NCBI GenBank assembly: GCA_001512665.1
Contig: LFSF01000018.1
Location: 1 to 57,918, forward strand
DNA length: 57,918 nt
Direction: 5' to 3'
Source of the DNA: Clostridiales bacterium DTU073
GTDB taxonomy: Bacteria > Bacillota > Peptococcia > DRI-13 > DTU073
The notes under the pieces are model-generated. The model was not told the DNA's origin, searched no databases, and saw only the letters and a list, made by a program, of their open reading frames with translations. Below are positions 13,858-57,714 of the stretch, piece by piece. Within the stretch, counting starts at the first letter, position 1. Each line of letters opens with the position of its first letter. The position numbers and the translations under genes were made by a program.

Positions 13858-13889
13858 AATATTAATAGAATCTTATGTTCAACATTTAA

Positions 13890-14040
13890 CTCCGTTAGGT
13901 GAGGCTACTATACAAAAAAATGCTACTGCCCTGAAATATCGAGAGATGCCAAAGGGTCAACAGGCAACATCGGCTTAAGGTGTTACCTAATGTAGCTGGG
14001 ATATCCCTACGTTGTATAGAGTCAAAGCTTTTACGAGGGG
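13890..14040 (+). ncRNA. M-box (ykoK) magnesium riboswitch aptamer
   Basis: The conserved M-box blocks appear in order: CCGTTAGGTGAGGCTACTATAC, CTGCCCTGAAA, ATCGAGAGATGCCAAAGGGTCAACAGGC reduced to its core here as GTCAACAGGC, GGCTTAAGGTG, AATGTAGCTGGGATATCC, and the closing GCTTTTACGAGG. M-box RNAs bind Mg2+ and shut off Mg2+ uptake genes. The gene downstream is a CorA-type transporter, which agrees. The terminal TACGAG (14032-14037) can pair with CTCGTA in the terminator (14069-14074), giving an antiterminator that excludes the terminator. Confidence 0.93.
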
Positions 14041-14064
14041 AATAAATTATTGATGATAATTTAT

Positions 14065-14256: not shown

Positions 14257-15186
14257 ATGCTCACTATTTATCATAGCCCAACTGATGAACAACTCATCCA
14301 AATAGACCATTTTGAAAAAGGGTCTTGGATTAATCTTGTTAATCCTACCGAAGAGGAAATTAACACGGTAGTTGAAAACACCCAAATTTTCCATGATTTT
14401 ATTAGATATCCCCTGGATGAGGAAGAAAGGCCACATATCGAATATGAGGATAACCAACTTTTAATTATCATCAGCGTGCCAATAATTCAAAATGCTGATG
14501 TAATGTATGATACAATTCCTCTGGGAATTATTCATACGGAAAATCATTTAGTTACTGTTTGCCTGCAAGACCTTGATCTTATGCAGGAATTTGCTCAGGG
14601 GAGAGTTAAAGGATTAGCAACTTATAAAAAAACTCGCTTTCTTTTGCAAATTCTCTATAAAAACGCCCAATTATACCTAAAATATTTACGCCAAATCGAT
14701 CAAAGATCTACAGAGTTAGAACTAGAATTGCATAAATCTGTACAAAATAAAGAATTAATTGCACTTCTCAACCAAGAAAAAGCTTTAGTCTTCTTTACAA
14801 CCTCTTTAAGATCCAATGAAATAGTCCTCGAAAAATTACTTAGAGGAAAATTTGTAAAAATGTATGAAGAAGACGAAGACCTCTTACAAGATGTAATCAT
14901 CGAAAATAAACAGGCAATAGAAATGGCGGACATCTACAGCAACATCCTTAGCGGAACCATGGATGCTTTCGCTTCCCTCATTTCTAATAACCTTAACATA
15001 GTGATGAAATACTTGGCCATCGTTACAATTATTCTGGCTTTACCCACGATGGTTGCCAGCTTTTTCGGCATGAACTTTGACTTGCCTTTCCAAGATTCAC
15101 CTTACGGCTTTGCCATCGCCGTAGGAATTTCCCTACTCTTATCCTTAACGGGGGTAATCTATCTAATCAAAAAGAAATTATTTTAA
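14257..15186 (+). CDS. corA: CorA family magnesium transporter
   Basis: A 309-residue CorA-type channel. The long N-terminal cytoplasmic region is rich in acidic and helical segments, and the two C-terminal membrane helices are joined by the GMNF signature (Gly-Met-Asn selectivity motif) at about residue 272. It ends with a basic KKK tail. The family forms pentamers that import Mg2+ (or Co2+/Ni2+). Regulation is visible: an M-box riboswitch and terminator lie upstream, then a leader ORF and a hairpin over its ribosome binding site. Substrate assignment to Mg2+ is supported by the riboswitch. Confidence 0.95.
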   Translation: MLTIYHSPTDEQLIQIDHFEKGSWINLVNPTEEEINTVVENTQIFHDFIRYPLDEEERPHIEYEDNQLLIIISVPIIQNADVMYDTIPLGIIHTENHLVTVCLQDLDLMQEFAQGRVKGLATYKKTRFLLQILYKNAQLYLKYLRQIDQRSTELELELHKSVQNKELIALLNQEKALVFFTTSLRSNEIVLEKLLRGKFVKMYEEDEDLLQDVIIENKQAIEMADIYSNILSGTMDAFASLISNNLNIVMKYLAIVTIILALPTMVASFFGMNFDLPFQDSPYGFAIAVGISLLLSLTGVIYLIKKKLF

Positions 15187-18287: not shown

Positions 18288-18335
18288 GGTGGCAGGGGGA
18301 CGTTTCAGGTGGCAGGGGGACGTTTCATTTGCCAT
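18288..18335. repeat. Dispersed GTGGCAGGGGGACG repeat, copy A1 (tandem half-units)
   Basis: Two direct 20-nt units of GGTGGCAGGGGGACGTTTCA (18288-18307, 18308-18327), the second followed by TTTGCCA. This is a half-site form of the palindromic family seen at 19535, 21113, 22294 and 26891. It lies between convergent genes. Confidence 0.8.
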
Positions 18336-19534: not shown

Positions 19535-19624
19535 TGTGGCAGGGGGACGCTTCATCTGCCACATTACCACCCAAGTAAAATTCGCCGGCTAGCTGATGTG
19601 GCAGATGAAACGTCCCCCTGCCAC
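19535..19624. repeat. Dispersed palindromic repeat, copy A2
   Basis: Inverted arms TGTGGCAGGGGGACGCTTCA... (19535-19563) and ...GAAACGTCCCCCTGCCAC (19597-19624) flank a 33-nt centre. It lies between the DUF39 gene and the NIL-ferredoxin gene, inside the presumed operon, so it would fold as a hairpin in the transcript. Confidence 0.85.
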
Positions 19625-21112: not shown

Positions 21113-21201
21113 GAGGCAGGGGGACATTTCATCAGCCACATTATCACCCAGTAAAATATAACTGACAAGCTGATGTGGCAGATAAAACGTCCCCCTGCCA
21201 C
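21113..21201. repeat. Dispersed palindromic repeat, copy A3
   Basis: Inverted arms GAGGCAGGGGGACATTTCAT (from 21113) and ATAAAACGTCCCCCTGCCAC (to 21201) around an AT-rich centre that resembles that of copy A2 (ATTATCACCCAGTAAAAT versus ATTACCACCCAAGTAAAAT). It lies between the lplA 3' end and the riboswitch promoter. Confidence 0.85.
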
Positions 21202-22293: not shown

Positions 22294-22399
22294 GTGTGGC
22301 AGGGGGACGGTGGCAGGGGGACGTTTCGTCTGCCACATTTTTCATTTGTCAGTTGTTCTTATTGAAAATGTGGCAGATGAAACGTCCCCCTGCCACACT
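22294..22399. repeat. Dispersed palindromic repeat, copy A4
   Basis: GTGTGGCAGGGGGACG, a second half-unit (GGTGGCAGGGGGACGTTTCG), TCTGCCACA, a centre, then TGTGGCAGATGAAACGTCCC and its closing bases to 22399. It fills most of the gap between lplA and the beta-propeller gene. Confidence 0.88.
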
Positions 22400-48883: not shown

Positions 48884-51800
48884 CTACCCAGAGGATATAG
48901 GTAAAATATCAAAATAAAGTTCAGGTAAAATAATTTTAACTTCTTGTTCTGTGTTTTCTTTTTTCCAGTAAACAATAAACCTAATTCTCGCTTGCTTAGG
49001 TATATACTTTTTTGATTTTAAGATTTCAATTTGCTTATTAAACTGTTGGGAAAATTTTAACACTGCTTGTCCTTCAGCATTACAGCAACCATCCCCGTCG
49101 AAATAAAGAACGTCACCACTATTAAGTGTAGAAATTAGTTTTTGCCGATATAAAAAGAAATCTAACCATACATCTTTAAAAGTCAACTGCTTCACTAATT
49201 GACTAGGCGGCAAATAAACTTCAGAATCATTTACTATTTTTAAATTCTCAGTTTTTAGGAAGTCTAGGTAATTTTCATTATAATGAATCATCAAGTTGTC
49301 TTTCGCTCTAGTCATAGCAACATACAGTTGTCTAAAATCTTCGTCTGTTAGAGGAGTAAATTGATCAAGCAGTAAAAAGATATTATTAAACTCCCGCCCT
49401 TTAGCTTTATGTATAGTGGAAACAAAGATAGTTTCGTTATTTCCCCCATAAAAATCCTCCAGATTTGATTCGCGAATAAAGATATGCAGATCTGATTTGT
49501 ATTTATATTTAGGATTCACTGTCTCAAAATTGGTAATGATGTTCTGACAAATCTCTAAATTTAAGCTGTGAGCAAATCTTTGCTTCAAATTTCGTTTAGC
49601 GTTTTCCCAAGCATCATCGCTAATTAAATATGCATTCTCAATTAAATTGAGTTGATTGAGGAAATAACGAACTTCGTAAAGATTGTATAAATTAAACCCT
49701 TCATTAGACTGAATAAGTTTGGACTTTACTCCCTTCTTCATCAACAATCCTGTAATCTGTAATGCTTCTTCATTAGTCTTGGTTAAAATGCAAGTAGTGC
49801 CCACAAGCTTTGCAGATAGCACATCATTTACTAAGGGTGTGGTTAGATTATTACTTCTATAGCGAACCAATTTTATTTTTCCGTTGTCACCCTGTACAGC
49901 CACAAGCGGTGTATCCTTTAAACGATGGCTAATTTTCTGAACAAACTGGTTGGTAAAATCAACCAAGTTCTTTTTACTCCTATAGTTTTCAACTAGTTCA
50001 TACTTAACAGCATTATACTCTAACAATAGTTTCTCCAGATATTTAGAACTAGAGCCTCTAAATTCAAAAATATTCTGATCATCATCTCCTACAGCAATGA
50101 CCCGCATTTCCTCATTATATTCCATCAATGCTTCGATTAGAGTAAATTCATCAGCATCCATATCCTGAGCTTCATCGATAACCAAAACTGTTTTCACAAT
50201 TCTACTTGGTTCCACTTCTCCACTCTTAATTTTCGTGATCGCTTCTTGAATTATTTCATCCGATTTGTCTAGGGTACCTACCTTCCCTAATAAATCAAAA
50301 CAATAGGAATGAAATGTTTTTATTTCTACAAAACGAGCAGCATTACCAATCAATTGAAGCAAGCGTTGTTTAAACTCAGTAGCCGCTGACCTGGAAAAGG
50401 TCACCATCAGCAGTTGTTCAGACTTGACATCTTCCATTAATAATAAAGAAGCCAGCTTATGTACTAAAATGCGGGTCTTGCCGCTGCCAGGTCCGGCAGC
50501 TACAACAATATATTTTGATTCATTGTCGTTAATAATTTTAAGTTGGGTTGGTGATAATTCACCAAAGATTTTTTTAAACTTAGCAGGTGTAATATTTCTG
50601 TTTATTTCGTTTCGCCTACTGCCTTTGAAATATTTTTGCAAAAATGAGTTGTAATTCAATTGAAAATAATCATCCACAAATTGTAGGGCAGCTTTGTAAT
50701 CACTAATCATTTTCCTAGCATACTCCCCTACTATATGAATCTGCTGTATTTTATTTTTGTAAAACTGATCCAGCTTCTGATAATCCTCAATTTTGTACCG
50801 TTTTTTAATATCCAACTCAATACGTTCAATAGTAAGTGGATTATATAGAATAAAAAAACCGCCTTCCATTTTTAAAGCTTCGATTTTTGATAAGTAAAAA
50901 AGAGCATTTTCTATATCCTTAGAAGTAGCTTTATTAAACAGTCCTGCACTTTCAAATTTATTCTTCAATTCTAAAACTGAAAATTCAACTAAGACTTCTT
51001 CCTGAGCGATTTCATCCTTATCTAAATTTGTACTTTTTTCCTGGAAAAGATACTCTAAAATAAACCGGGCTATTTCATAGCGATGATGCAGATTTTCCTG
51101 AAGCTCCTCCTTTTTCTGCAATAACAGAACGGCAACATGATTTTTAGTAAAATCCACTGTTTCCTTTTTTATCCAGTTTTTAATTGCCCAGAAATTTAAG
51201 ATTGTTTTCAATTTATTTGGCGTTACCTCACAATAACCCTCTTCTTCTGCTTGCTCATTAAGTTCTTTAATGTGTAGTATTTGTTCTTCATCCGAGATAA
51301 CTGTTAATAAAAATTTTTCAATATCTATAAATGTTTTTAGGATACTCAACGACCGGTTTTCGTTCTCTTTTCTCCTAATAAATGCTGTGATATCTTTCAT
51401 ATCAGCTAAAATCTTTTCCTCACGAAGAAGAGTTACAATTCTTATTACTTCTTCTTTTGGAATACCCAGATGGTCAGAGATGTAATCAACTCTTGATTCT
51501 GGCTCTTCATCATTTAGATGTTTCCTACTTTTACTAGAAATAAGCTTTTTAATAATGCGAATTGCCTGGGTTTTCTGCTTCTCATTAAATTTTTTTGATG
51601 CATTAATTTTATTAATTGCTTCTGCAGCATTCTTAGCCAGAATACTGTCGGCGAATAATCTTGGTGCATTATGACTACGCTTTACATATCCGGCTTCTTC
51701 CAAAGCCGCAATAGCCGTTTTTACTCTTGCTTCAATATCGCCAATTCGATCATCCCAACCAGCCTTTCGAGCAATCTCCAAAGCGGATTGAGAAACTTTT

Positions 51801-53695
51801 AAGCGAAATTTGGTAATATCTTTAATTGCTTTCCAGATCTGCTGAATTTCACGAATGTTAAGTTTAGTTTGGTTAAGAAGAATAAAATGTTTGTTTAAAT
51901 CTTCATCATTAAAGAGTACATAGCAATCTGCAGAAATATTTTCATCACGTCCTGCTCTTCCAGCTTCCTGAATGTAGTTTTCCAAAGAATTGGAGATTTC
52001 ATAGTGAATGACCATTCCCACATCTTTCTTATCTACTCCCATACCAAAAGCAGATGTGGCCACCATGATCTGAACCTCACCCTTCATAAAGGCATCCTGG
52101 TTTTCTGTTTTTTCCTGCTTATCCATCTTGCCATGATATGGTCTTGCTGAATAACCGTCTTGTGATAGTCTTTCGGCTAATTTGTATGCTTTTCTTGTTC
52201 GTGAAACATAAATGATAGTGGGGCAATTTTTTGCATCAAGTAAATTTCTAATTGTGCTGTATTTTTCTTCATCATTTTCTTTAGGAATCACTTGGTAAGA
52301 AAGATTACTTCTGGTTACATCAGTCTTGTAAACTTCCAGATCCAAAGATAGTTTTTTCTTAAAATAATCCCGAATATCTTCAATAACCTTTGGCTTAGCA
52401 GTAGCAGTAAAACAGGAGACAGGAATCCCCATCTCCATATTTTTCTTTTCTTGAAACGATTTAATAAAATCACCAATATATAAGTAATCAACCCGAAAAT
52501 CTTGCCCCCAGGCTGAAAAACAATGTGCTTCATCAACAACGAAGCGGACAATATTTCTACTTAAAAGCAAACGTTCAATAGTTTTTAAACGCAAAGACTC
52601 AGGAGTAAGATAAAGGATGGAAGCCGTACCGTTTTCCACTCTTTCTAACGCTTTTGCCCTTTCGATGGGATCAAGTAAACCATTTATGGTAACTGCTTCT
52701 GTTATGCCCACTTTCTCCAAATTATCTACTTGATCCTTCATTAATGATTGTAAGGGAGAAATAACTACGGTTAAGCCCTTAGAATTACGTCCACTCATTA
52801 AGGCAGGTACTTGAAAAGTAATTGATTTTCCGCCACCGGTAGGGAACACCGCTAAAAGCGATTTGTTGGCTATAGCAGCTTTTACAACCTCCTCCTGTAA
52901 AGGTTTCCCGGCAAAGGTTCTATATGCAGTATATCCAAAGAATTGCTTCAATCCTTTATGAATATCCAACGCGTCATTACAGTAAATACAGCCTTCTAAA
53001 CATGGATTGTTTCTTAATAAAAACATAACCCGTTCCACAGCAGGAAAATTCTTAATAACCCAAGGAGGAGTGATTGAATACCGACTTTTTGTGTTGAGCA
53101 AAGCTAGGCAATAAGCTAACTCAACAGGATTTTCTATGATAATTTTAGACAAATTGACCTTTTCGCAAATTTGCGAATAAAACTTTTCTCGAATAACATT
53201 TTCAAGAAGTATATCTTTTTCTTCATAATCAAGAAAATAAAAAAAGGAGCCAAACTCTTTTATATTTTTTAACAGGGAATAATAGATTTGTTTTAACACA
53301 TAATCTGCCTGCAAAAAAGCCGTTACTTCGTCAAAGAAAAGATCTCTTGCTTTTTTGGCATCATTCAGCGGATTGTTAAGTTCATCTGTTTGTAACTTAT
53401 CATCTTTAAGCAAAGCATGATAAGGTTTAGCAGGAAAAAGAAGCGGAGAAAGGAACAATGTATCAATATATTTTAGGTTATTAAGACCAGCTGAATCGAT
53501 CGCATTTTGCAGATATTTTAAATCATGTTTAAAAATATTATGTCCACAAATATACTCTGTCCCTTGCAAAAATCCAACAAAATCAGCAATGGAATTAGAG
53601 TGAAACGAACTTCCATCCCCTTTAACGCTACCAATATCGAGAATCTTTCCAGTATTCATCTCAATTTCGATATCAATAAAAGCGATAGATTTCAT
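48884..53695 (-). CDS. Giant fusion helicase: DnaQ-like exonuclease + RecQ helicase + UvrD-type helicase
   Basis: 1603 residues from ATG 53695 (GGAGGGGA upstream). Domain order: DEDD-type exonuclease (1-125; FIDIEIE, GHNIFKHDLKYL, NDAKKARDLF); RecQ-like helicase (about 255-620; Walker A FPTGGGKS about 283, DEAH about 386, AGRAGRD); a helical/winged-helix linker (620-1040); a UvrD-like superfamily 1 helicase (about 1040-1470; AAGPGSGKTR about 1065, IDEAQD about 1170, STIHKAKGREFN about 1425, VAMTRAKDNL); and a 100-residue tail. Exonuclease motif III has Asn where His is usual. It lies beside DNA methyltransferase genes. Confidence 0.88.
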   Translation of the reverse strand: MKSIAFIDIEIEMNTGKILDIGSVKGDGSSFHSNSIADFVGFLQGTEYICGHNIFKHDLKYLQNAIDSAGLNNLKYIDTLFLSPLLFPAKPYHALLKDDKLQTDELNNPLNDAKKARDLFFDEVTAFLQADYVLKQIYYSLLKNIKEFGSFFYFLDYEEKDILLENVIREKFYSQICEKVNLSKIIIENPVELAYCLALLNTKSRYSITPPWVIKNFPAVERVMFLLRNNPCLEGCIYCNDALDIHKGLKQFFGYTAYRTFAGKPLQEEVVKAAIANKSLLAVFPTGGGKSITFQVPALMSGRNSKGLTVVISPLQSLMKDQVDNLEKVGITEAVTINGLLDPIERAKALERVENGTASILYLTPESLRLKTIERLLLSRNIVRFVVDEAHCFSAWGQDFRVDYLYIGDFIKSFQEKKNMEMGIPVSCFTATAKPKVIEDIRDYFKKKLSLDLEVYKTDVTRSNLSYQVIPKENDEEKYSTIRNLLDAKNCPTIIYVSRTRKAYKLAERLSQDGYSARPYHGKMDKQEKTENQDAFMKGEVQIMVATSAFGMGVDKKDVGMVIHYEISNSLENYIQEAGRAGRDENISADCYVLFNDEDLNKHFILLNQTKLNIREIQQIWKAIKDITKFRLKVSQSALEIARKAGWDDRIGDIEARVKTAIAALEEAGYVKRSHNAPRLFADSILAKNAAEAINKINASKKFNEKQKTQAIRIIKKLISSKSRKHLNDEEPESRVDYISDHLGIPKEEVIRIVTLLREEKILADMKDITAFIRRKENENRSLSILKTFIDIEKFLLTVISDEEQILHIKELNEQAEEEGYCEVTPNKLKTILNFWAIKNWIKKETVDFTKNHVAVLLLQKKEELQENLHHRYEIARFILEYLFQEKSTNLDKDEIAQEEVLVEFSVLELKNKFESAGLFNKATSKDIENALFYLSKIEALKMEGGFFILYNPLTIERIELDIKKRYKIEDYQKLDQFYKNKIQQIHIVGEYARKMISDYKAALQFVDDYFQLNYNSFLQKYFKGSRRNEINRNITPAKFKKIFGELSPTQLKIINDNESKYIVVAAGPGSGKTRILVHKLASLLLMEDVKSEQLLMVTFSRSAATEFKQRLLQLIGNAARFVEIKTFHSYCFDLLGKVGTLDKSDEIIQEAITKIKSGEVEPSRIVKTVLVIDEAQDMDADEFTLIEALMEYNEEMRVIAVGDDDQNIFEFRGSSSKYLEKLLLEYNAVKYELVENYRSKKNLVDFTNQFVQKISHRLKDTPLVAVQGDNGKIKLVRYRSNNLTTPLVNDVLSAKLVGTTCILTKTNEEALQITGLLMKKGVKSKLIQSNEGFNLYNLYEVRYFLNQLNLIENAYLISDDAWENAKRNLKQRFAHSLNLEICQNIITNFETVNPKYKYKSDLHIFIRESNLEDFYGGNNETIFVSTIHKAKGREFNNIFLLLDQFTPLTDEDFRQLYVAMTRAKDNLMIHYNENYLDFLKTENLKIVNDSEVYLPPSQLVKQLTFKDVWLDFFLYRQKLISTLNSGDVLYFDGDGCCNAEGQAVLKFSQQFNKQIEILKSKKYIPKQARIRFIVYWKKENTEQEVKIILPELYFDILPISSG

Positions 53696-53810
53696 ATCCT
53701 CCCCTCCAAATCCATTATACATTACTAAAACAAACAATACAAAAAAGAGACTGTTAATCATGCTTAAGAAATAACAGTATGAATATTCCACTACGACAAT
53801 AAAAGTTTAA

Positions 53811-53852
53811 AAAAACATAGACCCCAACGAAAATTCGGGTTCTATGTTTTTT
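53811..53852 (-). terminator. Terminator of the methyltransferase operon
   Basis: ACATAGACCCC and GGGTTCTATGT pair with one wobble around an AT-rich loop, with T-runs on both sides. It resembles the hairpin at 48324-48359. Confidence 0.75.
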
Positions 53853-53864
53853 ATTAAGGTAGTT

Positions 53865-54611
53865 TTACTTGCGAAAAACAAACAAATACTCATGAGCGAT
53901 CAACAAAAAATTATATTTTACACTGTTAGTCTTCCAATAACCCGTAGCCTTACAGTTATGTTGTTCTTTGATAATAAGCTCTTTCAACTTAAATCCTTGT
54001 TCTTGAAAAATCTTCATAACCTCAAAACTCATGGGAATCATATGCCCTTTTTGCCTTGTATCCCCCATTAAAATAGCACAAAACTTATCCTTTTTTAAAA
54101 CTCGGTAGCTTTCAGCAGCTACTTTTTTCATTTCCTCTAAAAAAGCAGGAACTTTTAAATGTGATAAATCGCCCTCTAAATCTTCGCTATACTGAATAAT
54201 ATTGGCATAAGGCGGATGTGTACAAATAAAATCTATCTGTTCATTGTCGATAAAACTAAGGTTGCGAGCATCACCTTGCTTTATATATACCTCACCACAA
54301 TTTTCTCTTGTAAAATCAACAGCCTTTTTGCATAAATCAAGAGAATCAGAGTTAATATCCACACCAATAATATTGCGGTTTAAAAGTTTTGCTTCAATAA
54401 GTGTAGTTCCGCCACCAGCAAACTGATCAAGCACTAAATCTCCTTCTTGCGAATATCGTAAAAGTAAATTACGAGGAATATACGGCGACCAATTTCCCCT
54501 ATATTTTGAGTTATGTGTTGCCCAATCTCCACGTTCCGGAAAAGACCACACTGTTGTCATCTGCAATTCAAAATTATCAGGTTCCCATTTTATTTTCTTG
54601 TTTCTGCTCAT
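53865..54611 (-). CDS. DNA methyltransferase (DpnA-like, second methylase of a DpnII-type system)
   Basis: 248 residues from ATG 54611 (ATG 54656 lies inside the upstream gene). Motif I is VLDQFAGGGTTLIEAKLL and motif IV is CTHPPYANIIQYS (HPPY rather than DPPY); an NxxxT-type VLKKDKFCAILMGD follows. It ends in KYNFLLIAHEYLFVFRK. It follows the restriction-gene remnant directly, overlapping it within 2 nt. DpnII-type operons carry two adenine methylases of this kind (DpnM and DpnA), the second active on single-stranded DNA. The assignment to GATC is by context. Confidence 0.85.
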   Translation of the reverse strand: MSRNKKIKWEPDNFELQMTTVWSFPERGDWATHNSKYRGNWSPYIPRNLLLRYSQEGDLVLDQFAGGGTTLIEAKLLNRNIIGVDINSDSLDLCKKAVDFTRENCGEVYIKQGDARNLSFIDNEQIDFICTHPPYANIIQYSEDLEGDLSHLKVPAFLEEMKKVAAESYRVLKKDKFCAILMGDTRQKGHMIPMSFEVMKIFQEQGFKLKELIIKEQHNCKATGYWKTNSVKYNFLLIAHEYLFVFRK

Positions 54612-54612
54612 A

Positions 54613-55012
54613 TCATAAACCTCGAGTAATAATTTCCTCCAATAACCCATTTTCAATCATTTTTATATTAATAACATAATCTGTTGCATTAAATGTTTCA
54701 AGCAACGGATGTTGGGCCGTTAACCAACCCTGTCCATCAGTAACCCAAATAAAACCAACCTTAGGCTCTTGTTTTATAAGTTCATAAAGACTTTTAAACT
54801 CACCTGCCACAGATTTTAATTTTGTGCCTCCACCACTATAATAATTAACTTCAAGTAAATAAATATTATCCTTTGCTTTAATCGCAAAATCAAAACACCG
54901 TTTTAATTTATCCGTAGGAACATCCCGTATCTTTTAAATGTGTTATAAAATATTCAAATGCTTCTTTTTCGGAAAATACACCAAATTCCTTATATTTATC
55001 TATCAATTTCAT
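54613..55012 (-). pseudogene. DpnII/MboI family restriction endonuclease, broken
   Basis: ATG 55012 starts an in-frame N-terminal piece (MKLIDKYKEFGVFSEKEAFE) that ends at a TAA after about 34 codons. In another frame the sequence continues with the DpnII catalytic region (FDFAIKAKDNIYLLEVNYYS, GGGTKLKSVAGEFKSLY) and the C-terminus (GFIWVTDGQGW, YVINIKMIENGLLEE), stopping at 54613. The total of about 133 codons is half the DpnII length of about 290, so there is both a frameshift and an internal deletion. The nuclease cannot be made as a whole protein. Confidence 0.85.
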
Positions 55013-55023
55013 AAACAAACACC

Positions 55024-55929
55024 TCAATAATTGCTAATTAGCAATTCGCTTATTTCTCCACGACGTTCACTATTGCAGTTAATCATCCTTTTAGCTATAA
55101 TTCGCTTTATATTGTATTTATTATAAATTTTATCAAAAAAGTTATCGTCTTTATCCATGTTCTTAGGATCAGAATTACTAATTACTACCTTAGCCCCTTG
55201 CCGATGAATCTCATCTACAAATTTACCTAAGGCGATCTGTTCATGATCATCAAAGACATTTTCCGTATAAGCTGTAAAATTTGCAGTTATAGAAAGAGGG
55301 CGATAAGGTGGATCAATATAGACAAAAGTATTTTTATCTATAAAGTCTGCACACTCTTTATAATCACCACAACGAATTTGTACGCCTTGTAACAATTTAT
55401 TAATAGCGAGTAAATTTTTTTTATCGCAAATAAGTGGTTTTTTGTACGCCCCCATCGGTACATTAAACAAGCCTTTCTTATTTACTCGAAAAAGACCGTT
55501 AAAACAAGTTTTATTTAAAAATATAAACAAAACTGCTTTTTCTAAGTTAACCTGTTCATTACTGTTTACTTTCAGACAATTGAAACGTTCGCGTATTTCT
55601 AAATACATTTTCTTTCGTTCAGTCTTAGCCAGCGGCCAATAAATATCCTGCAAATATTCCAGCCTTTGCAATAACTCCTCTACCTGATTTTTTATCTGAT
55701 TATATGTATTAATAAGTTCCGCGTTAATATCATTAATTAAAACTTCTTTAAAACTGTATGTTGAAAGGAGGTCAAACAAAACAGCTCCACCTCCAACAAA
55801 AGGTTCACAGTATCTGTTTATACTTTTTCCTAAATCTTTGGGGTATTTTGCTCTAATCTCGTCTAAAAGTTGTCCTTTCCCACCGGCCCATTTAACAAAA
55901 GGCTTAACTTTTACGTTTCCCTGATTCAT
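55024..55929 (-). CDS. dam: Dam/DpnM family DNA adenine methyltransferase
   Basis: A 301-residue D12-class N6-adenine methylase. FVKWAGGKGQLLDEI is motif I (SAM binding), RYCEPFVGGGAVLFDLL follows, and TFVYIDPPYRPL is motif IV (DPPY catalytic). ATG 55929 begins the operon, with a promoter at 55968-55996. Target most likely GATC as in DpnM; not proven by sequence. It remains intact although the restriction gene downstream is broken, so it now acts as an orphan methylase. Confidence 0.92.
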   Translation of the reverse strand: MNQGNVKVKPFVKWAGGKGQLLDEIRAKYPKDLGKSINRYCEPFVGGGAVLFDLLSTYSFKEVLINDINAELINTYNQIKNQVEELLQRLEYLQDIYWPLAKTERKKMYLEIRERFNCLKVNSNEQVNLEKAVLFIFLNKTCFNGLFRVNKKGLFNVPMGAYKKPLICDKKNLLAINKLLQGVQIRCGDYKECADFIDKNTFVYIDPPYRPLSITANFTAYTENVFDDHEQIALGKFVDEIHRQGAKVVISNSDPKNMDKDDNFFDKIYNKYNIKRIIAKRMINCNSERRGEISELLISNY

Positions 55930-56197: not shown

Positions 56198-56471
56198 ATA
56201 CCCTTATTTTATCCCTTCCACACAATTGATTCTAAATATATCGAATTTAAATCAATGTTTATATTACCAATAAAAAAGCAACTGTTAATGATAAATATTA
56301 TACGATGCTGTTTATAATGGTAATTTAAACAAAAAAATTCTGAAATTATTTTAAAAATATCGGATTAGATACAATAAATACATACGCACAACAATTTGAT
56401 CAATATCATCATGCACTTTCACACTTTGTAAAAAATCAAGCAAACATTTGTTATATGAAAGTAGGTAAAAA

Positions 56472-56518
56472 TTAAACCACCTACCGATAAATCCTTTTTA
56501 TCAATAGATGGTAGATTT
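56472..56518 (-). terminator. Putative terminator after ssrA
   Basis: On the minus strand CTACC...GATAAA pairs with TTTATC...GGTAGG around an AAGGA loop, followed by TTTAATTTTTAC. It lies immediately downstream of the tmRNA 3' end. Confidence 0.55.
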
Positions 56519-56520
56519 TC

Positions 56521-57163
56521 TGGTGGAGGTGAGGGGACGTGCTCTTCCTTGTTTTCACAAGGCACTGACTATATCTTCGACTCCCGACTATTGCGGTAGC
56601 CGTCTGGCGTATTATGAAGGCATATTATTGTGTTTTACCTCCATCCCAGCACTCCATGCTTTAGGAAAGTTTAGGAGTCTGTGAGTCGATACAGAGCTGT
56701 AGGCTTTCGCCACATACCCCTCGGTGTTGCCTTGGTTAAGCAATAAATAGTTGTCTCGTGCCCAACTTTAGGTTTCACCGATAAAGCCAGATTATCACCT
56801 ATAGGTTACCCCATAGGGCGACTCATCTTGAATCGAACCCCTGTCCGAAGGACCGACCACAGAAGCTTCTCCGAGTGCAGCCTGTATTTTCCTTCTTGCC
56901 TTCAGGACTCCTACAGGCGGGATTCCTTCAGGCCAGTCTCCTTAATTTTCCCTAGAGTTAGGAGACAATGGCTCTAGAGTAGCCTGGTATTATGACCTCT
57001 TATCCCTCACCCCAGGCACAGAAGGTAAGAGGTTAGGCTGCAATTAAGCAGCTAAAGCGTAATTTTCGTTTGCGTTTAACTTTTGCGCACCGTTTTGCGG
57101 GCTAGTGCAACCCCGACTCGCTTCTTCTGCCACCGCTTCCCCCGTCGAAACCAGTACACCCCC
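56521..57163 (-). ncRNA. ssrA: tmRNA (ssrA), interrupted by a group I intron
   Basis: Read on the minus strand, the 5' end is GGGGGTGTACTGGTTTCGAC, and the 3' end CACCTCCACCA carries an encoded CCA and pairs with it as the acceptor stem. The tag frame is at 57044-57073: resume codon GCA then AACGAAAATTACGCTTTAGC, GCT, TAA, giving ANENYALAA. The T arm is split: AGGGGTTCGAT (exon 1 ends at 56832) and TCCCCT (exon 2 is 56521-56537). Joining restores a 5-bp T stem and a normal TTCGATT loop. Mature length would be 349 nt, typical of bacterial tmRNA. smpB lies 84 nt upstream. Confidence 0.95.
56538..56831 (-). ncRNA. Group I intron in the tmRNA T-loop (294 nt, no ORF)
   Basis: The 5' exon ends in U (…TTCGAT) and the intron ends in G, as group I rules require. 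P1 is visible: GAUUC pairs with GAGUC nine bases on, giving a U-G wobble exactly at the splice site. Conserved core blocks are TATCGGTGAAACC with its partner CACCG (P4), ACAGACTCC (R-like) with AAGATATAGTC (S-like, P7), and a 3' P9 hairpin CCTTGTGAAAACAAGG. No homing endonuclease frame is present. Splicing is needed for a functional tmRNA. Confidence 0.92.
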
Positions 57164-57246: not shown

Positions 57247-57714
57247 TTAATATTGTTCCTTCCCACGCAGAGCCCGCTCCATTTCACGCTTAGCATCTCG
57301 CTCCGCCATGGCACTTCTTTTATCATAAATCTTTTTCCCTCGGGCAAGGGCTAGTTCTACCTTAGCCCGGCCTTTATGGAAATAGACTTTAAGCGGCACC
57401 AGTGTTAGCCCCTGCTGCGTAACTTTGCCAAAAAGTCTGTTGATTTCACTTCTATGCAAAAGCAACTTACGCGGGCGCACAGGATCCACATTAAAACGAT
57501 TACCCTGCTCATACGGACTGATATGCATATTAAAAAGGAACATCTCGCCATTTACCACCTGAGCATAGCTATCCTTAAGATTTGCTCTGCCTGCCCGTAA
57601 AGATTTAACCTCAGTACCTGTTAAGGCTATTCCGGCCTCATAGGTTTCCTCAATAAAATAATCATGACGGGCTTTGCGATTGTCTGTGACAATTTTAATC
57701 GGCTTTTCCACCAT
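57247..57714 (-). CDS. smpB: SsrA-binding protein SmpB
   Basis: A 155-residue protein of standard length. Signatures are [64 protein letters not shown] and the basic C-terminal tail ([20 protein letters not shown]) that enters the mRNA channel. It delivers tmRNA to stalled ribosomes. It is adjacent to ssrA on the same strand, the usual arrangement. A 7-bp hairpin (57729-57748) lies upstream and may affect the leader. Confidence 0.97.

What the first reader, a model, noticed from the sequence alone, without database searches (positions are those of the whole stretch)
56521..57163. tmRNA gene split by a self-splicing-type group I intron in the T-loop
Without the 294-nt insert, the RNA folds as a normal 349-nt tmRNA with an ANENYALAA tag; with it, the T arm is broken. 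The splice junction can be placed to the base: exon ends in U, intron ends in G, and P1 gives a U-G wobble at the site. Core P4, P7 and P9 blocks are seen. Group I introns in the tmRNA T-loop are known from a few Clostridia, so the class is not new, but this copy has no endonuclease, lies in the last 17 nt of the RNA, and makes ribosome rescue depend on splicing.
Basis: partly seen in the sequence, partly recalled or inferred. Interest (0 to 1): 0.85.

Follow-up and report, generated by a model that had tools for sequence, protein, structure and literature searches.

The report
Group I intron in tmRNA T-loop
The only gene in this genome for tmRNA, the RNA that rescues stuck ribosomes, is interrupted by a 294-base self-splicing-type intron; the reading is right, but hundreds of bacteria are already known to carry an intron at this same place, so it is an ordinary new example.

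Summary
Minus strand 57163-56521 is ssrA (tmRNA), directly downstream of smpB. A 294-nt insert (56831-56538) lies between T-loop bases 6 and 7. With the insert, ARAGORN finds nothing; without it, it finds a 349-nt tmRNA with tag ANENYALAA. The spliced 3' 45 nt equal those of an intronless tmRNA of the same order. The insert matches Rfam Intron_gpI (46.4 bits, E 7e-11, just under the cut-off of 50) and aligns with 25 other tmRNA introns from Bacillota at the identical site. A hand-drawn P1-P9 structure is 93.4% paired across these 26 sequences (34-39% when slid by 1-3 columns), with 42 compensated pairs; the -1U.G pair and terminal G are invariant, and a covarying P9.0 fixes the 3' splice site. 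The genome has no second tmRNA. It belongs to the known tmRNA position-7 class: 883 unique intron-form sequences in 21 phyla are published, most without an endonuclease, and the C. botulinum relative is reported to self-splice. So it is a new member of a known kind. Splicing here is inferred, not shown. Presence is patchy: six relatives in its family lack it, and near-identical tmRNAs in the order differ in having it.

The parts
56832..57163 (-). tmRNA (ssrA) 5' exon, 332 nt: acceptor 5' strand GGGGGUG to T-loop U59
   Evidence: RF00023 156.9 bits; ARAGORN on spliced sequence
57044..57073 (-). tag reading frame GCA..TAA, ANENYALAA*
   Evidence: ARAGORN on spliced sequence
56538..56831 (-). group I intron, 294 nt, between T-loop nt 6 and 7 (site 7)
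   Evidence: RF00028 46.4 bits E 7.3e-11; aligned with 25 introns at the identical site
56819..56835 (-). P1: exon CGAU + intron UC with internal guide GAGUCG; U.G at the 5' splice site
   Evidence: U.G in 26 of 26; inner two pairs covary
56798..56817 (-). P2, 8 bp, with GNRA-type loop GUAA
   Evidence: 7 of 8 pairs changed on both sides, 98% paired
56786..56791 (-). P3 5' strand UCUGGC (3' strand 56608-56603)
   Evidence: 100% paired, 3 pairs compensated
56721..56781 (-). P4 (56781-56776 / 56726-56721) and P5 (56772-56770 / 56732-56730)
   Evidence: 100% and 87% paired
56693..56720 (-). P6/P6a with GAAA loop
   Evidence: 96% paired, 5 compensated pairs
56684..56687 (-). P7 5' strand GACU (3' strand AGUC 56570-56567), guanosine-site helix; crosses P3
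   Evidence: invariant in 26 of 26
56614..56678 (-). P7.1 and P7.2, peripheral helices of IA-type introns
   Evidence: 97-98% paired with compensated changes
56579..56601 (-). P8
   Evidence: 6 of 7 pairs compensated
56539..56565 (-). P9.0 GUGC/GCAC around the P9 hairpin, placing the terminal G (56538) at the 3' splice site
   Evidence: P9.0 covaries: GUG/CAC, GUA/UAC, GCA/UGU, GCG/CGU
56521..56537 (-). tmRNA 3' exon, 17 nt: U60, T-stem CCCCU, acceptor CACCUCC, ACCA
   Evidence: pairs with AGGGG and GGGGGUG, with G3.U70
56467..56514 (-). likely intrinsic terminator of ssrA: long hairpin followed by a T-rich run
   Evidence: read by eye
57247..57714 (-). smpB, the protein partner of tmRNA, directly upstream
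   Evidence: Pfam SmpB E 5.9e-66

Best explanation
The sole ssrA gene carries an IA-type group I intron at the known T-loop site 7. The gene is transcribed as one 643-nt precursor. The intron folds into P1-P9, with its guide sequence GUCG holding the T-loop bases CGAU of the 5' exon. A free guanosine bound at P7 attacks after U59; the freed 3'-OH of U59 attacks after the terminal G, which P9.0 places at the core; the exons join to a normal 349-nt tmRNA, whose T-loop UUCGAUU can then form. Only then can it act with SmpB in trans-translation. Shown here: gene, insertion site, conserved group I fold, single copy, intact smpB. Inferred: transcription, splicing, and self-splicing without proteins.
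For: RF00028 match E 7e-11; 25 other introns at the same base in other Bacillota tmRNAs, all with -1 U and terminal G; 71-pair structure 93.4% paired, 42 pairs and 302 cells with changes on both sides, 0 of 500 shuffles as high, slid versions 34-39%; intron z-score -5.2; exact in-silico removal yields an ARAGORN tmRNA whose last 45 nt are identical to the intronless tmRNA of G014 in the same order; one tmRNA in the genome; exon structures intact, which argues for continued function; the C. botulinum tmRNA intron (287 nt) is stated to have been shown self-splicing (PMC2729099).
Against: No RNA data. The RF00028 score is just under the curated cut-off. P10 is weak (about two pairs). The most stable single-sequence fold does not show P3/P7, as expected for a pseudoknot, but that is no support either.
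Confidence: 0.95

Rival explanations
1. The intron is decayed and no longer splices; ssrA is then non-functional and the cell relies on RqcH-type rescue.
For: No RNA data; an NFACT/RqcH-type gene is present.
Against: All core helices, U.G, terminal G and P9.0 are intact and fit 25 relatives; tmRNA exons and smpB show no decay.
Confidence: 0.03
2. The split tmRNA works unspliced or as two pieces nicked in the T-loop, like permuted tmRNAs, without exon joining.
For: T stem and acceptor stem can still pair across the insert in the precursor fold.
Against: Exact group I splice signals at both ends, and the same site in 25 relatives.
Confidence: 0.01
3. Assembly or binning artefact: the insert was joined to the gene by misassembly.
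For: The genome is a draft of 52 contigs.
Against: The insert sits at exactly the known intron site, its guide sequence matches its own exon, smpB and ssrA lie in order, and its closest introns are in the same order.
Confidence: 0.01

Closest known systems
tmRNA group I introns at T-loop position 7 (tmRNA_intron form; PMC11915505; Williams 2002)
   Same: Same host gene, same internucleotide site, same -1U/terminal-G rule, similar size, no endonuclease as in most members
   Different: Only in sequence details; a somewhat longer P5 loop than its relatives in A1
Clostridium botulinum tmRNA intron (287 nt; PMC2729099)
   Same: Site class, size, exon lengths; stated there as self-splicing
   Different: Different species; not aligned here
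Phage T4 td intron (group IA2)
   Same: Recalled: the P7 strands and the P7.1/P7.2 arrangement look alike
   Different: td lies in a protein gene and has an endonuclease; the comparison is from memory, not run

Membership tests
Group I self-splicing intron | Significant match to a group I model | tested here: met
   RF00028 E 7.3e-11, full length, but 46.4 bits against a curated cut-off of 50
Group I self-splicing intron | Core P3-P8 with P7 crossing P3 | tested here: met
   P3, P4, P7 100% paired in 26 introns; P7 never varies, so it gives no covariation
Group I self-splicing intron | U.G in P1 at the 5' splice site and terminal G at the 3' end | tested here: met
   26 of 26
Group I self-splicing intron | Guanosine-initiated splicing | not testable with these tools
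   needs RNA
Group I self-splicing intron | P10 pairing of guide with 3' exon | tested here: inconclusive
   only about two pairs, UC of the 3' exon with GA of the guide, read by eye
tmRNA intron form, T-loop site 7 | Insertion between T-loop nt 6 and 7 of ssrA | tested here: met
   site numbering as I read it from PMC11915505
tmRNA intron form, T-loop site 7 | Score above 150 bits with the published tmRNA_intron covariance model | not tested
   model is in a supplementary file, not held here
Functional tmRNA | tRNA-like domain with G3.U70, resume codon and tag, pseudoknots, CCA | tested here: met
   RF00023 156.9 bits and ARAGORN after splicing; G3.U70 read from sequence
Group IA subgroup | P7.1/P7.2 between P7 and P3 | tested here: met
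   both helices covary; the exact subgroup was not assigned by a model

The most novel reading that the evidence does not exclude
tmRNA introns without endonuclease turn over quickly among close relatives: near-identical tmRNA genes differ in having the intron (G015 with and G008 without it, two Neobacillus niacini genomes, two Caldicoprobacter species), while introns of one order group together. That would need frequent precise loss or endonuclease-free regain, for instance by reverse splicing or recombination of the gene.
Probability: 0.35. Interest if true: 0.4.

Novelty: new member of a known kind. Interest (0 to 1): 0.2.

Why it matters
It indicates that in this Bacillota-type lineage the single tmRNA must be spliced before it can work, and it adds a clean aligned set of 26 introns. 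Practically, it shows that ARAGORN as run here misses the gene and that the Rfam group I model stays below its cut-off, so such genomes may be wrongly annotated as lacking tmRNA.

Tried and rejected
A second group I intron in the genome: the only other RF00028 match (C18:59893-60230, 20.9 bits, E 0.003) lies over a repeated palindrome between genes, with no tRNA; judged chance. A phage or plasmid source: no similar DNA in phage records, and the one plasmid-collection match touches the exon only. A copy of the tmRNA 3' end as an attachment-site repeat: none in the window. Endonuclease: no sense-strand ORF over 48 aa overlaps the intron. Williams 2002 was not held. First attempts to extract T-arms by script used a wrong pattern and were redone.

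Full report
What is there. On the minus strand, smpB (57714-57247; Pfam SmpB, E 5.9e-66) is followed by ssrA at 57163-56521. Rfam tmRNA matches at 156.9 bits, but its alignment collapses in the T-loop: the 3' T-stem strand and 3' acceptor strand are missing. They lie 294 nt further on, as TCCCCTCACCTCCACCA at 56537-56521. ARAGORN finds no tmRNA in the window or in the 643-nt precursor, but finds a 349-nt tmRNA with tag ANENYALAA when 56831-56538 is taken out. The last 45 nt of the spliced form are identical to the intronless tmRNA of G014 in the same order.

The insert is a group I intron. Rfam Intron_gpI matches along its whole length, E 7.3e-11, 46.4 bits, a little under the curated cut-off of 50. 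It folds more stably than all of 200 shuffles (z -5.2). From relatives I took 25 further distinct introns of 241-346 nt; all lie between T-loop bases 6 and 7, follow a U and end in G. Of 62 empty-site loci read the same way (some are the same gene fetched twice), 24 have U at that base, so the site base matters, as expected for P1. On the alignment a hand-drawn structure with P1, P2, P3, P4, P5, P6/P6a, P7, P7.1, P7.2, P8, P9.0 and P9 is 93.4% paired; slid versions give 34-39%; 42 of 71 pairs have compensated changes and no shuffle reaches the observed values. The structure was drawn on the window's sequence with the alignment in view, so the percentage leans towards it, but the compensated changes in the other 25 do not come from that. 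P9.0 covaries (GUG/CAC, GUA/UAC, GCA/UGU, GCG/CGU) and fixes the 3' splice site. The Rfam alignment seems to set P7 a few bases off; GACU 56687-56684 with AGUC 56570-56567 is invariant in all 26.

Copy number and dependence. The genome (1.67 Mb, 96% complete) holds one tmRNA; the other RF00023 matches score 30 bits or less and are mostly tRNA-sized. So trans-translation should need splicing. The statement that ribosome rescue as a whole depends on it goes too far, because an NFACT/RqcH-type gene is present. In the precursor the T stem and acceptor stem can still pair; what is lost is the T-loop, whose CGAU is held in P1.

Distribution. All six other genomes of the family lack the intron. Its nearest introns are in G015 and G016, two other families of the same order (branch 99/98). 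G015 and G008, in one genus, have nearly identical tmRNA exons, with and without intron; the same holds for two Neobacillus niacini genomes and two Caldicoprobacter species. On the exon tree the label needs 18 changes, about as many as shuffled labels (17.3), so presence does not follow host kinship, while the introns themselves mostly group by order and class. The loci were not drawn at random, so this count is only indicative. Loss, or local regain, must be common.

Comparison with what is known. The expanded tmRNA database (PMC11915505) reports 883 unique intron-form tmRNAs in 21 phyla, mainly Bacillota, mainly at T-loop position 7, with endonuclease genes in 23 of 844. The C. botulinum tmRNA intron, 287 nt, is cited as shown to be self-splicing (PMC2729099). 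The present intron meets the tested features of that class, apart from a weak P10.

Noticed in passing
window 19543-19617, 21120-21194, 22317-22389 (also single arms at 18316 and 26891); own genome, 68 arm matches: A dispersed palindromic REP/MITE-like repeat with arms GGGGACGTTTCATCTGCCACA facing each other about 30 nt apart; 36 forward and 32 reverse arm matches in the genome, none for the reversed control.
   Followed up: partly
L064, L123, L144 (introns): Palindromic GGGGACATTCCCC elements sit in the outer loops (P7.2, and P8 in L144) of tmRNA introns of three genomes; one of these genomes, G038, has 7 such matches in all. Small repeats seem to nest in the introns' peripheral loops.
   Followed up: partly
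window 13884-14048 (+): M-box magnesium riboswitch (148.8 bits) ahead of a 309-aa protein at 14257-15186 that looks by eye like a CorA-type magnesium transporter.
   Followed up: no
window 21021-20884 (-): SAM riboswitch (82.6 bits) ahead of a 386-aa ORF and a ferredoxin-like gene at 20805-18361; a repeat pair at 21120-21194 lies just upstream.
   Followed up: no
window 48884-55929 (-): Downstream of ssrA: two DNA methyltransferases (MethyltransfD12 and N6_N4_Mtase) and a 1635-aa protein joining RecQ-like and UvrD-like helicases, apparently behind an exonuclease-like start; the RecQ part matches PADLOC DpdF models. Possibly a defence or modification island next to tmRNA.
   Followed up: partly
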